21,579 nucleotides of DNA from a virus: the IMG/VR virus record IMGVR_UViG_3300025151_000353, positions 1-21,579 of that record, one strand, 5' to 3'. Shown here piece after piece: positions 3,816-21,579 of the stretch. Positions within the stretch are counted from its first letter, which is position 1; the number at the start of each line of letters is the position of its first letter. The notes under the pieces were generated by a model, which was not told the origin of the DNA, ran no database searches, and saw nothing but the letters and a program-made list of their open reading frames with translations. The position numbers and the translations under genes are program-made.

Positions 3816-4931
3816 ATGGAAATAAAAGTAAAAGCGGTCCCAGGACCAGGAGAGAAGTCTGTACAAGAGGTTGAAAACGAACTACTTGAGCAGCACGAAG
3901 AGAAACAAGTTGCTGAAGAGCAGCCTGTAGAAACCAATACTGAAACTGTTGAAGAGCAGGCAGTATTACAAGAATTAACCGAGGAAGAGGTTGAGAAGCC
4001 TACATTCGGTGAAGATGACGTTCTTTCATTTATTAAAGAGAGATATAACAAAGAGATAAACTCTGTCGATGATTTATTTGCTCAACGTGAAGCTAATGAT
4101 GAATTACCAGAGGATGTATCTGCCTTCTTGAAGTATAAGAAGGAAACAGGTCGAGGCATCGATGATTTTATGAAGCTACAAGCTGATTATGACAAGATGA
4201 ACGCAGACCAAGTATTGCGAGAATACTACGCCTCTACAGAGGGAGATTTGGACTCAGAAGATATTCAGTATCTAATGGATCAAAAGTTTTCTTATGATGA
4301 GGAGTTAGATGATGACTCTGATGTTAAGGCAAAAAAAATCGCAAAGAAAAGAGAACTTGCAAAAGCAAAGAAGTACTTCAATGAGTTAAAGGAGACGTAT
4401 AAGGTACCTGTCGAGTCGGCTAGTGCACCTGTCAACGAAGATGAAATGGAGTCTTACAATGCTTACAAGGAATATATATCACAAGCACAATCTGTACAAG
4501 AGGAGAATGCTAAGAAGTCTGAGTACTTCCAGAAGAAGACTGATGAAATTTTCAGTGACGAATTCAAAGGTTTTGGGTTCAAGGTCGGTGATCAAGAGAT
4601 TCTGTTTAGCCCTGGTGAGGCGAAGGAAATCAAGGCACTTCAATCTGACATTAACAACTTTATATCTAAGTATTTAGATGAGAATGGTATGGTTAAGGAT
4701 GCAGGAGGGTATCATAAGGCATTAGCTGCTGCAATGAACCCTGAAAAGTTGGCCGCTTTCTTTTATGAGAAAGGTAAGGCTGATGCAGTTGTGAGTGGCT
4801 CAAGACAGTCTAAAAATGTAAACATGGATTTAAAGAGTACACCACAAAACCTTACTAACGATTCAGGTTTTAAAATCAGAGCAATAAATACAGATAGTGG
4901 GCGTGGATTAAAGATTAGATCAAAAAAATAA
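3816..4931 (+). CDS. Probable capsid scaffolding protein (371 aa)
   Basis: This is inferred to guide assembly of the capsid shell. It sits between portal and major capsid genes, the standard place for a scaffold. The N-terminal 65 residues are almost purely acidic and polar (repeated EE, EEQ, VE). The middle holds charged helices (AKKIAKKRELAKAKKYF), and the tail is basic (RGLKIRSKK at the C-terminus), a common way for scaffolds to touch the negatively charged inner capsid face. There are no predicted membrane segments and no cysteine-rich or catalytic motif. I see no protease triad, so maturation by a fused protease is not supported. The start ATG follows an A/T-rich leader (TTTAATTTAAT). 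Function rests on composition and gene order, not on a recognised domain. Confidence 0.7.
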   Translation: MEIKVKAVPGPGEKSVQEVENELLEQHEEKQVAEEQPVETNTETVEEQAVLQELTEEEVEKPTFGEDDVLSFIKERYNKEINSVDDLFAQREANDELPEDVSAFLKYKKETGRGIDDFMKLQADYDKMNADQVLREYYASTEGDLDSEDIQYLMDQKFSYDEELDDDSDVKAKKIAKKRELAKAKKYFNELKETYKVPVESASAPVNEDEMESYNAYKEYISQAQSVQEENAKKSEYFQKKTDEIFSDEFKGFGFKVGDQEILFSPGEAKEIKALQSDINNFISKYLDENGMVKDAGGYHKALAAAMNPEKLAAFFYEKGKADAVVSGSRQSKNVNMDLKSTPQNLTNDSGFKIRAINTDSGRGLKIRSKK

Positions 4932-6419: not shown

Positions 6420-7163
6420 ATGAAAAAACAAAAAGTCCTTAAGGACAGAACCTATCGATTAGTAGGGGCGACCGCTCCTTTGAGTTACTCAATCAGAACA
6501 AGAAACTCATCAAGAAAACCATTACTACATTTTGACGGAGAGTCAAACAGAGCATTAAGGTATGCATCAAACCAAAAAAGCCCATTTGAGGATGAGCAGG
6601 ATGGTAACGCTATTTTACAGCCCGTTGTTTTTGAAAACGGAATGCTTTATGTTGACAAGACAAATGTAATACTACAAGAATTTTTATCACTACACCCTGA
6701 CAATGGAAGTATTTTTGCTGAGGTAGATACAGAGAAGGATGCTTCGGTTGAAGTTGAAAACCTAGACTACCAATTAGAGGCTCAGCTACAAGCTAGAGAT
6801 CTACCTTTAGAGATGCTAGAAACCATTGGAAGAGTTGTATTAGGTATGAATATAGACAAGATGTCTACAGCTGAACTTAAGAGGGATGTTAGGTTGTACG
6901 CTAAGAACGAACCAGAGGACTTCTTAGACACTCTAAACGATCCAATGCTTAAGCTACAGAACTTGGCATCAAAATTATTAGATGAGGGCTTATTAAGGCT
7001 TAAAAACAATAATAAAGATGTATACTTCAACTTAGGAGGTAACAAAAAGAAAATGCTGACACTTCCGTTTGGGGAGTCTCCAGTATATACGATTGCTTCA
7101 TACTTTCAAACTGATGAAGGTATAGAGGTTATGACTATGCTAGAGAATAAGTTACAGGAGTAA
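6420..7163 (+). CDS. Conserved phage protein of unknown function (247 aa)
   Basis: I recognise this as a type that recurs next to capsid genes in Bacteroidota and some marine phages, but I know of no established function. The N-terminal 80 residues carry the conserved stretch: YRLVGATAPLSYSIRTRNS, KPLLHFD, NRALRYA and KSPFEDEQDGNAI. Then comes a beta-like segment and a Glu/Leu-rich helical middle (LEMLETIGRVVLGMN, TAELKRDVRLYAK). The C-terminus (KNNNKDVYFNLGGNKKKML, then PFGESPVYTIASYF) could be a small winged-helix-like unit, but this is a guess. It has no signal peptide or membrane segment. It stands alone between two terminators with no promoter box of its own, so it depends on read-through from the capsid transcript. 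A minor capsid or head-completion role is an inference from position. Confidence 0.75.
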   Translation: MKKQKVLKDRTYRLVGATAPLSYSIRTRNSSRKPLLHFDGESNRALRYASNQKSPFEDEQDGNAILQPVVFENGMLYVDKTNVILQEFLSLHPDNGSIFAEVDTEKDASVEVENLDYQLEAQLQARDLPLEMLETIGRVVLGMNIDKMSTAELKRDVRLYAKNEPEDFLDTLNDPMLKLQNLASKLLDEGLLRLKNNNKDVYFNLGGNKKKMLTLPFGESPVYTIASYFQTDEGIEVMTMLENKLQE

Positions 7164-17943: not shown

Positions 17944-20900
17944 ATGGATAAATTAGAACAACTACACCAACTTTTACAGTCTAAAGGTTTAGACAATAAA
18001 ACATTTGAAGAGTTTAAAGCAAACTTTGGAGACAACCCAGAAAAGCAAAAACAGCTTCATTCGTTTCTTGTGTCTAAGCAAATGGACAACAAGTCATTTG
18101 AAGAGTTTCAGTCAAACTTCTTTACTCCTTTAAAAAAAAAAGAAGATTCTACTTTGGAAACGGAAACTACGGATGGGTTACCGACTCCTACATCCTTGGA
18201 TTCTTCAGAAAAAACCGATGAGGAAGAAGCTTTTAAGACTTTCTTAAGAGTAAATTATCCAGAATTAAACACAGAATACACCTCACTTCAAGAAGAGTTA
18301 GGCACGCTTCCCATGATATCTAATAGATCTGGTCAAGTTCAAAAAAGAATTGACGAGATCAAATCTTACGTAAACCAAAGTGTAGAAGACGCCTCTCAAT
18401 TAGGCCCTAACATATATGCGCAAGATTATATAAACAATAGACTAAAAGTCAATGAGATTAAGTCAAACCTTTTTGAGATAGAAAAAAAGTACGATGAAGT
18501 TTCTAAAAGAACAGACCTTTCATTTGAAGAATTAATATCAAACGATGGTACTTATCAAGACCTTAAAAACCAACAAGGTTTATATGAATCTTTTAACGAA
18601 GACTACGATAAGGCATTAGAGGATATATCAAAAGATACAGGCGGTAAAACAGGGACAAAAGATTTCATGCATACAATAACAGGCCTATTTAATATAGACA
18701 CTGAAAATGCTACCGAGATAACCAAAATGGAGGAGGAGCTTAGACTAGAGATACTTAAAAATCTAGGTTCTGACAAAGAAATGCAAAAGGCTGCTGGAGG
18801 GTATATGACTCTAGAAGAAAAAGAAGAGATTATAGCTATGTCTAAGATGTCTTTGTTTTCAAGAAAATATCAAGATGCTCAGAAAGTTTTAGATAATCCA
18901 GACGCAACAACAGAGGAAAAAGTACAGGCAAGAAATGAATTGTCAAATTCTTTTTTAGATCTAGGTATAAGTATCACTGATGGAAAGATGAACGTCAGTC
19001 CTGCGTTTAAGAAGACAATAGAAAGCAAGAAGTTCAAGGAAATGGCTAGTGAAAATCCAATCCTAGACACTATTAGTACTTTTGTAGGCGCTGCAACAAA
19101 GCTTGCTCTTCAACGTTTTGTACAGTTTCCAGCTGAAATTATGGCCGCTGGTATGAATTATTTCTTTTATGAAGATGATGAGTATTCACCAGCCGATGCT
19201 TTTATAGATTCATTCTCAAGATTTACAAACTTTAACTATGTTCCATCAAGTGAAGAGAAAGGTTTACTTGTAAATGAAAACGGAGAGTTTGAATTTAGCG
19301 GATATGGAGCTGCTAAAGGTGTTGCAGAAGCTTTACCTTTTACTCTTGGATTATTAGCTGGAATGAAGAGTGGGAAGTTCAAGTTACCTAAAAACAACAT
19401 GATAACAAAAATGTTTAGTAGGTACAAGAATCCTCAAAAACAATACGAAAGATACAAGCTTGTGACAGAGTCTTATAAGCTAGCGTTATCAGGAAGCATG
19501 GAGGAAGCTAGAGACTTAGGATTAGATAAAGGAGATGCCGTATTATACGGTAACAGTGTGGCTTTGATGGAAGGTGTAACAGGACTTATAATGCCAGATA
19601 CTAAATACTTTAAAACTGTAGCTGGTAAGGGTGCATTAAAATCATTTAAAGATAACTTAAAAAAGGCAGCGAGCAAAAAAGCTAGATATAAAGCCATACA
19701 AGAATTCTTTACAAACATTGGAAAAGAAATAGGTGAAGAAGAGGCTATGCTTGCGTATCAAGATATTGCAAAAACAGTAGCATTAACTGATCATGAGCTT
19801 TTCTCTGATATTACAGATATAGCACAACAAAAACAATTACTAACTGTTACGGTTGGTCTTTCTGGATCTTTAGGAGCTGTTAAAATCCCTTCGAGTATAA
19901 AGCAGAACAGAAAAAAAATATACAACGACATTAAGGCAAATGCAGATGTTTTATCTGCAATGATATCTGATGAGATTGATATGTTTCCAGAGAAAAAAGA
20001 AGACCTAACAAAGGTTAATAACTATATAGCTAATGTAAAAAAGGCTGTAGAAACATCACCAGAAAATGTTACACCTGAACAAATAGAGCTTCTTACACAA
20101 AAGATAGAGTTACAAAAAGAAATGGAATCTGTAGACGATTCGTTTAAAGGTCCAATACAAGATAAAATAGATAACATAAATAAACAAATAGCAGATGCCG
20201 TTCAAGAGCAAGAAACAAGAGATATACCTGATGATAAACCAGCCGAAGGTGTACAAGAAGTGGAAGAAGAAGTACGGGTCGCTCCTGAAGAAGAAGCGGA
20301 AGTAGAGACTACGACCACTAAGGAGGGTGAGATAGAATTATTTCACTCTACCTCAGAGAATTTTACAGATTTTAATGTTATGGGGATGACAGATGGAAAA
20401 GTTGAGTCTCCACTTAATGAATTAGGTATTCATTTAGGAACTAAAGAACAAGCTCAAAATAGAGCTAAAACAAAAAATATACCTGAGAATAAACAGAGAT
20501 TAATAAAGGTTAAAATAAATCCTAAAAATGTTGTTAGAGTTGACGATGTAGGTAGATGGACTCTTTCAAAATATAGAAACATACTACAAAAATTAGGATT
20601 GGTATCTGAAGAAAGAGGTGTTGCTAAAAAAGAAATAAAATCTTTTGATGACGTATTAAGAGTTTTAAAAGAAAATAATATTGACGCATTTGTTTATAAA
20701 AATAAGTTTGAAGGCAAGGGGGATTCTTATATTGTTTTTGATAATGAGTCTTTAACACAAACAGAGGTAACTGAAGAAGAAGCGGAAGTAGAGACTACGC
20801 AAAAGGTAGAGCCACTTAAGACTACTAAGCCTAATAAAAAGTTAAAGGACGCTTTTGATAATAATACCATAAGTGAAGAAGACTTAGAGGCGATGACTCT

Positions 20901-21579
20901 TTATGCATTAAATAAGAAGCAAAATAAAAAGAGATTAACCCCATTTGAGAAAAGAATTCTAGAGGCAACTTCTGTAGAAAGAGCTGATCAAATAGCAGAT
21001 CTTCAAATAAAATTAGAAGACAATATAAAGGCACAGAGGAAAGAGTTTGATGATATCAGGGCTCAGAAGATAAAAGAAACAGAGGTTGAGGAAAAAGTTG
21101 ATCCAGTAGTTCAAGAGTATCTTGATGAGCTTAACAAATACAGAAGAGCCAAAACTAAAAATGCTTACGATCTAGATGAGAAAAAGATCACACAAGAGCA
21201 GTATGAGGCTGAAAATAAAAGGCTAAACCAAGAGTTAACTGCAACTCAAAAACGCCTTAAAATGAACAATAAAAAAGCAGGTATAGATACAAGAAATGAG
21301 GATTGGAACAAAAAGATTAAAGAAAATCTTCCAGAATCAAACATAAGCACATCTGAAGATCTCAATAAAAAACTAGAAGAAGGAACTTGGGGTATGCTAA
21401 CTGCTGAAAATCCTAACGCAGATATTGTAACGGATAAGCAAAATGAAAATGCTAATAAAAGAGCAGAAAAATGGCTCAAATCAAAAGGCTACTCATTTAC
21501 TAAAATTTTCGGTAAATACGGTAATTCAGAGCAATCTTACTTAGTGGATGGATTGACACGTGAAGATGCTATTGAGTTC
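17944..21579 (+). CDS. Giant polyvalent virion protein with ART-like and DUF3293-like parts, 3'-truncated
   Basis: The frame is open for 1212 codons to the right edge. It starts 5 bases after the previous stop, behind TAAAATTT. In order: two 22-residue N-terminal repeats (7-28 and 38-59); charged helices to about 370; a hydrophobic segment (about 375-480: FVGAATKLALQRFVQFPAEI, VAEALPFTLGLLAGM), possibly membrane-active; more helices, including IGEEEAMLAYQDIAKT; an acidic linker; an ART-like module (about 791-942); a second acidic linker; coiled coils (about 960-1140); and at 1149-1212 a DUF3293-like segment (GMLTAENPN, then GYSFTKIFGKYGNSEQSYLV). The ART-like signs are LFHST with H801, GIHLGTKEQA with H830, VDDVGRW, and the closing DSYIVFDNESL. 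I cannot assign the third catalytic residue. Inferred to be packaged and injected to disarm host or rival systems, as proposed for phage polyvalent proteins. Confidence 0.72.
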   Translation, partial: MDKLEQLHQLLQSKGLDNKTFEEFKANFGDNPEKQKQLHSFLVSKQMDNKSFEEFQSNFFTPLKKKEDSTLETETTDGLPTPTSLDSSEKTDEEEAFKTFLRVNYPELNTEYTSLQEELGTLPMISNRSGQVQKRIDEIKSYVNQSVEDASQLGPNIYAQDYINNRLKVNEIKSNLFEIEKKYDEVSKRTDLSFEELISNDGTYQDLKNQQGLYESFNEDYDKALEDISKDTGGKTGTKDFMHTITGLFNIDTENATEITKMEEELRLEILKNLGSDKEMQKAAGGYMTLEEKEEIIAMSKMSLFSRKYQDAQKVLDNPDATTEEKVQARNELSNSFLDLGISITDGKMNVSPAFKKTIESKKFKEMASENPILDTISTFVGAATKLALQRFVQFPAEIMAAGMNYFFYEDDEYSPADAFIDSFSRFTNFNYVPSSEEKGLLVNENGEFEFSGYGAAKGVAEALPFTLGLLAGMKSGKFKLPKNNMITKMFSRYKNPQKQYERYKLVTESYKLALSGSMEEARDLGLDKGDAVLYGNSVALMEGVTGLIMPDTKYFKTVAGKGALKSFKDNLKKAASKKARYKAIQEFFTNIGKEIGEEEAMLAYQDIAKTVALTDHELFSDITDIAQQKQLLTVTVGLSGSLGAVKIPSSIKQNRKKIYNDIKANADVLSAMISDEIDMFPEKKEDLTKVNNYIANVKKAVETSPENVTPEQIELLTQKIELQKEMESVDDSFKGPIQDKIDNINKQIADAVQEQETRDIPDDKPAEGVQEVEEEVRVAPEEEAEVETTTTKEGEIELFHSTSENFTDFNVMGMTDGKVESPLNELGIHLGTKEQAQNRAKTKNIPENKQRLIKVKINPKNVVRVDDVGRWTLSKYRNILQKLGLVSEERGVAKKEIKSFDDVLRVLKENNIDAFVYKNKFEGKGDSYIVFDNESLTQTEVTEEEAEVETTQKVEPLKTTKPNKKLKDAFDNNTISEEDLEAMTLYALNKKQNKKRLTPFEKRILEATSVERADQIADLQIKLEDNIKAQRKEFDDIRAQKIKETEVEEKVDPVVQEYLDELNKYRRAKTKNAYDLDEKKITQEQYEAENKRLNQELTATQKRLKMNNKKAGIDTRNEDWNKKIKENLPESNISTSEDLNKKLEEGTWGMLTAENPNADIVTDKQNENANKRAEKWLKSKGYSFTKIFGKYGNSEQSYLVDGLTREDAIEF
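17962..18120 (+). repeat. Two N-terminal protein repeats in the giant protein
   Basis: Residues 7-28 and 38-59 align without gaps at a 31-residue period: L-H near the start, then S-K-x-x-(D-N-K)-x-(F-E-E-F)-x-x-N-F. The DNA has diverged more than the protein, which suggests an old duplication kept by selection. Probably a small helical docking unit; the function is unknown. Confidence 0.85.
20285..20313 (+). repeat. 29-base perfect direct repeat, left copy
   Basis: This is identical over 29 bases to 20771-20799. It begins CTGAAGAAGAAGCGG and ends AGAGACTACG, and the bases just outside differ between copies. It encodes the acidic linker EEEAEVETT (residues 782-790) immediately before the ART-like module of the giant gene. 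Confidence 0.95.
20771..20799 (+). repeat. 29-base perfect direct repeat, right copy
   Basis: This is the second copy of the repeat at 20285-20313, offset by exactly 486 bases (162 codons) and in the same reading frame. It encodes the same EEEAEVETT linker (residues 944-952), immediately after the ART-like module. Recombination between the copies would remove the module without shifting the frame. Confidence 0.95.

What the first reader, a model, noticed from the sequence alone, without database searches (positions are those of the whole stretch)
20285..20799. Toxin-like module bracketed by a perfect 29-base in-frame direct repeat
The ART-like segment of the giant cargo gene lies exactly between two identical 29-base stretches, each encoding the linker EEEAEVETT with identical codons. 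The period is 486 bases, a multiple of three, so recombination would excise or exchange the module cleanly while keeping the rest of the protein. Identity at every synonymous position suggests a recent event or active recombination, unlike the diverged N-terminal protein repeats of the same gene. It may be a domain-cassette mechanism by which phages diversify injected effectors. That it is a swap site, and not just a duplicated linker, is inference.
Basis: partly seen in the sequence, partly recalled or inferred. Interest (0 to 1): 0.8.

Follow-up and report, generated by a model that had tools for sequence, protein, structure and literature searches.

The report
Repeat is a hidden gene's end
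The repeated "linker" around a toxin-like domain in this giant phage protein is really the tail of a tiny, conserved, unannotated second gene hidden out of frame inside the giant gene; related phages hide the same tiny gene inside a different virion gene, and effector domains seem to land at its ends without breaking it.

Summary
The 29-base perfect in-frame repeat (20285-20313, 20771-20799) is real and beyond chance. It is not merely a linker. The first copy is the 3' end (LKKKRK-stop plus 8 bases) of a 36-codon gene, ATG 20195 to TAG 20303-20305, nested in the +1 frame of the giant gene. The family occurs once per genome in most related phages tested. It is nested out of frame in two different virion genes: the giant gene in the window's clade, and the scaffold-like gene between portal and capsid in the sister clade. 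It stands free in unrelated phages (phrog_1375, function unknown). Inside it the usual codon pattern is inverted, and both frames are kept open. Three giants (window, elemoA, L215) carry an ART-type domain bracketed by a duplicated end of this nested gene, each keeping one intact copy. The close relatives inspected have other domains at that point. Active excision is not shown. The window module's ART identity is good but indirect. Translation of the small gene is inferred, not measured.

The parts
17944..21579 (+). giant polyvalent-type virion gene, 3' end cut by the contig (1212 codons held)
   Evidence: open frame; same place as the 3859-aa gene of MW202828 and the 3667-aa 'structural protein' of elemoA; DUF3293 region shared with elemoA
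20195..20305 (+). nested small gene in the +1 frame, 36 codons plus TAG stop, MPFKSKKQEIYLMINQPKVYKKWKKKYGSLLKKKRK
   Evidence: family of about 125 instances; profile built from scaffold-nested copies finds it at 1e-13; codon-position pattern
20285..20313 (+). repeat copy 1 = last 6 codons and stop of the small gene plus 8 bases
20314..20769 (+). ART-like module (152 codons)
   Evidence: 26% identical, pairwise E 2e-9, to a pT24 protein that is ART-PolyVal PF18760 at 3e-20; no direct Pfam ART hit
20771..20799 (+). repeat copy 2 = duplicated end of the small gene; the rest of the gene is absent here
21397..21576 (+). DUF3293 region, downstream of the module, shared with elemoA
   Evidence: PF11697 5.7e-7, above cut-off; 38% identity to elemoA
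3816..4931 (+). scaffold-like gene between portal and capsid: no small gene here, but its orthologues in the sister clade carry it
   Evidence: 41% identity to the L115 host gene; address tree

Best explanation
SHOWN BY SEQUENCE: the repeat is the duplicated 3' end of a conserved small gene that lies out of frame (+1) inside the giant gene, and the giant frame reads the same DNA as an acidic, Q/E-rich linker (AAG AAG AAG in the small gene is GAA GAA GAA in the giant frame). The small gene is found once in most of the genomes tested. It lies inside the giant gene in one clade and inside the scaffold-like gene in the sister clade. INFERRED: it makes a short basic helical protein from an internal start on the late mRNA. 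Because the small gene must stay intact, effector modules such as ART domains that land in it are kept only if one of its ends is duplicated so that a complete copy is regenerated; the 24-29-base exact repeats are the footprint of such insertions, probably by recombination using the small gene as the common stretch of DNA between otherwise unlike giant genes.
For: Same small ORF in about 125 loci, nearly all nested in the same phase. 27 of 34 full records have a match, one strong match each. Substitutions in codons 7-26 (not fixed by the search) fall on small-frame position 3 (.32 against .18 and .12 in giants), so the host frame's third position is the least variable, the reverse of a host-only region. 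Host frame open in 119 of 119 nested cases against 0.2% expected when small-gene codons are redrawn synonymously. Free-standing relatives found by tblastn in psg01 and S-CBS2; phrog_1375 matches 21 of 51 members. Portal tree separates the two addresses with support 100. Repeats of 29, 26 and about 24 exact bases (about 42 with two mismatches in L215) at an end of the small gene bracket ART-type domains in three giants; 3 of 4 widely spaced repeats touch the small gene, P about 5e-4. In L215 the far copy keeps the family's usual end (KKK-stop) and the near copy has a new one (GS-stop), as expected if the insertion broke the gene near its end.
Against: No expression data. The 119 nested cases were chosen for a long host ORF (about seven free-standing cases left out). 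The P for spaced repeats rests on three cases and a post hoc spacing filter; with tandem repeats included it is 0.04. ARTs are common in such proteins (PMC5512222), so their presence next to the small gene could be coincidence. The window's own small protein has no PHROG hit. L139 has an ART-like domain after the small gene and no repeat. The small gene was not found in 7 of the 34 records or in Panino, phi38:1, Gundel_1 and phi19:3.
Confidence: 0.8

Rival explanations
1. One reading: a domain-cassette swap site in which two homologous linkers recombine to excise or exchange the ART module in frame.
For: Exact in-frame repeats and different domains at the same point in relatives.
Against: The repeat matches the end of a conserved nested gene and not a general linker; all 68 elemo records keep the module; no excised form seen; loss by the same recombination would be as easy as gain.
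Confidence: 0.25
2. The small ORF is not a gene; the conserved DNA is a recombination or regulatory element and the +1 frame is open by chance.
For: Conservation at DNA level is strong and the motif lies at a domain junction.
Against: Free-standing protein homologues, conserved start and stop, and substitutions concentrated at the small frame's third positions.
Confidence: 0.07
3. Chance or low-complexity similarity between two acidic linkers.
For: E-rich linkers are repetitive and GAA-rich.
Against: Synonymous shuffles never reach 29 nt. The repeat carries the rare GCG and ACG codons and the nested gene's stop; two other giants show the same anatomy.
Confidence: 0.03

Closest known systems
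ShiLan domain: out-of-frame HNH endonuclease hidden in a phage methylase gene (Arsenault et al. 2025, PMC11855218)
   Same: A gene hidden in another frame of a phage gene, with the host frame reading through it without stops and no splicing signal.
   Different: The hidden protein here is a 34-57-aa basic helical protein with no HNH match; it is kept at one address per clade instead of being patchily present, and it sits in virion genes.
phrog_1375 small phage proteins (function unknown)
   Same: Profile match for 21 of 51 members and the same MPFKSKxQ...P..AKKW pattern.
   Different: In the giants and scaffold-like genes examined here it is nested out of frame and, in the elemo and MW202828 records, unannotated.
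Polyvalent proteins of phages with ART-PolyVal domains (Iyer et al. 2017, PMC5512222)
   Same: Giant multidomain phage proteins with ART and other effector domains.
   Different: My term search of that paper found no mention of linkers or overlapping genes; the bracketing by ends of a nested gene is the new part.
Integrative elements that regenerate a target gene such as tRNA genes (from general knowledge)
   Same: Insertion near one end of a gene with a duplicate that restores an intact copy.
   Different: No integrase was sought or seen; the target is a nested protein gene; the cargo is read in frame with the host gene.

Membership tests
phrog_1375 | Profile match of the protein | tested here: inconclusive
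   21 of 51 family members match, best 1.5e-5; the window's own copy has no hit at E up to 1, but a profile from scaffold-nested copies finds it at 1e-13
phrog_1375 | Existence as a separate gene in other phages | tested here: met
   psg01 CDS of 39 aa, S-CBS2 unannotated ORF, G023 directly after the giant gene
ShiLan-type hidden homing element | Out-of-frame ORF inside a host gene whose own frame stays open | tested here: met
ShiLan-type hidden homing element | Encodes an HNH or other homing endonuclease | tested here: not met
   no Pfam or NCBIfam nuclease match, 34-57 aa, two to three helices
ShiLan-type hidden homing element | Patchy presence in otherwise uninterrupted alleles | tested here: inconclusive
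   address follows the portal tree; scaffold gene without the small gene exists in the window's clade
ART-PolyVal (PF18760), window module | Direct profile match | tested here: not met
   no ART family at E up to 1
ART-PolyVal (PF18760), window module | Homology to a certain member | tested here: met
   pT24 BAV39282 PF18760 3e-20; pairwise 26% over 160 columns, E 2e-9
ART-PolyVal (PF18760), window module | ART fold | tested here: inconclusive
   single-sequence model pLDDT 54; no meaningful PDB match
Active recombination cassette | Genomes or reads lacking or exchanging the module between the repeats | tested here: inconclusive
   other domains at that point in relatives; no variation in 68 elemo records; no reads available

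The most novel reading that the evidence does not exclude
The nested gene works as a landing site: effector cassettes repeatedly integrate into it, regenerate its end and are read in frame with the giant virion protein, so a dual-frame gene that must be kept serves as an intragenic attachment site that lets phages change injected effectors.
Probability: 0.3. Interest if true: 0.85.

Novelty: new variant of a known kind. Interest (0 to 1): 0.72.

Why it matters
A gene family goes unannotated in dozens of environmental phage contigs and in the elemo phages (a match in all 68 elemo records; the one whose table I read annotates only the giant CDS there), because annotation pipelines keep one frame. 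It has changed address between two virion genes while staying out of frame, which is unusual for overlapping genes, usually thought to arise where they sit. It also gives a concrete, testable reason why modules in giant virion proteins break at one particular point.

Tried and rejected
Close relatives of the giant gene or module in viral contigs by peptide patterns: none. Direct Pfam or NCBIfam identification of the module: none credible (PASTA hit judged spurious). Structure of the module: single-sequence model too poor, PDB matches meaningless. PDB profile hits of the small protein to designed propellers: summed repeat artefacts, no stretch passes alone. Host-genome scan with the 18-mer: 119 stretches, only 4 members by profile, 3 of them nested, so the pattern alone is near chance there. 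A DNA-element reading of the conserved motif was my own first idea and was dropped when the +1 frame translated to the MPFKSK family. I first took the 18-mer loci without a host ORF for chance hits; they are free-standing members by profile. Literature: no paper with MPFKSK; overlap searches gave ShiLan as nearest.

Full report
OBSERVATION. The repeat is as described: 29 identical bases at 20285-20313 and 20771-20799, 486 apart, both read EEEAEVETT in the giant frame that starts at 17944. Identity ends abruptly on both sides. Synonymous shuffles of the gene gave longest repeats of 13.6 on average, 25 at most in 500. The window is a whole IMG/VR record of 21,579 bases, so the gene is cut at 1212 codons.

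CONTEXT. The window holds terminase, portal, scaffold-like, capsid and other virion genes of a podophage related to MW202828.1 (portal 66% identical), Maribacter phage Panino (48%) and the Flavobacterium elemo phages (46%). The giant gene has the same place as the 3859-aa gene of MW202828 and the 3667-aa gene of elemoA, and its DUF3293 region matches elemoA.

THE LINKER IS A GENE. Fetching 80 portal relatives and their giant genes showed a motif just before the repeat, DAVQEQETRDIP...EGVQEVEEEVR, with nearly identical codons in phages whose surrounding giant protein is only about 27% identical. Nearly all differences between copies were non-synonymous in the giant frame, which pointed to another frame. 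In +1 the same DNA reads MPFKSKKQEIYLMINQPKVYKKWKKKYGSLLKKKRK-stop (20195-20305). An 18-base core finds at least 120 stretches in IMG/VR, nearly all with the same arrangement.

TESTS OF THE NESTED GENE. (a) A profile from copies nested in the scaffold-like gene finds the window copy (1e-13), free-standing copies, and copies in portal-fetched records not chosen by the DNA pattern. (b) tblastn, not the DNA pattern, found free-standing homologues in phage 023Pt_psg01 (an annotated 39-aa CDS between the head-to-tail connecting and head protein genes) and in Synechococcus phage S-CBS2. (c) phrog_1375, function unknown, matches 21 of 51 members. (d) In codons 7-26 the small frame shows the usual third-position excess; in the giants the host frame's third position is the least variable, while a host-only region of the scaffold-like genes behaves normally. 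(e) Redrawing the small gene's codons synonymously leaves the host frame open in 0.2% of cases; it is open in 119 of 119 nested cases, so both frames are kept. These cases were selected for a long host ORF, with about seven free-standing ones left out. (f) 27 of 34 full records have a match, with one strong match each (G048 has a second, weak match). (g) A model of the protein is two to three helices with pLDDT 81; its C-terminus is lysine-rich. Lysine AAG runs read one base earlier are glutamate GAA runs, which explains why it fits acidic linkers.

TWO ADDRESSES. In 89 loci the small gene lies near the start of an ORF of about 400 aa; in the four of these loci laid out, that ORF lies between the portal gene and the gene in the capsid position, and it is the homologue of window 3816-4931. 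In the window's group the small gene lies in the giant gene. A portal tree of 81 phages separates the two sets with support 100. In one member of the giant group, G023/L102, it stands free, its ATG about ten bases after the giant gene's stop. It was not found in Panino, phi38:1, Gundel_1 or phi19:3.

THE REPEAT AS FOOTPRINT. Among 37 giants with the small gene, four have exact repeats of at least 22 bases spaced 300 or more apart; three touch the small gene (P about 5e-4 by random placement; 0.04 if tandem repeats are counted; the spacing filter was post hoc). All three bracket an ART-type domain: the window's (ART-PolyVal-like through pT24), L215's (PF03496 above cut-off) and elemoA's (YRGTS-type, by motif only; no Pfam ART hit). 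In elemoA the repeat is the gene's start and the complete copy is the second one; in the window and L215 it is the tail and the complete copy is the first one. In L215 the far copy still carries the family's usual KKK-stop end while the near copy has a new end, GS-stop. That is what insertion inside the small gene with regeneration of the lost end would leave. Mechanism and direction are inference. L139 has an ART-like domain (weak match, below cut-off) after the small gene and no such repeat.

The close relatives inspected have other domains after the small gene, so module turnover at this point is real. Excision or exchange through the 29-base repeat is not shown, and the elemo population is uniform.

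KNOWN. The nearest published case is the ShiLan hidden HNH gene (PMC11855218), the same in anatomy, but the nuclease criterion fails here. ARTs are the most common protein-modifying domain of polyvalent proteins (PMC5512222), which weakens the ART coincidence. I found no description of this nested gene in the papers held; absence from that library is not proof of novelty.

Noticed in passing
17979-18119; also L006, L101, L120, L144, L162, L200: The giant genes share N-terminal tandem repeats of about 27-33 codons, diverged in the window and with exact stretches of 20-32 bases in others; not explained.
   Followed up: no
L095 (G002), giant residues 2207 and 2554: A 26-base exact in-frame repeat (PTTRSRKQ, spacing 1041) away from the small gene brackets a domain with an HEVQHY-type motif.
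   Followed up: partly
L095, minus strand near 6584: The small gene here has ATT in place of ATG and lacks four codons relative to the window's, so it may be decaying or use another start.
   Followed up: no
L279, L301, L342: Nested copies also occur in contigs of the bacterial and archaeal genome collection (L279 is a contig of a Woesearchaeota MAG); binning of phage contigs with hosts is the likely reason.
   Followed up: no
L102 (G023): In one phage of the giant clade the small gene stands free directly after the giant gene, a possible intermediate between nested and free forms.
   Followed up: partly
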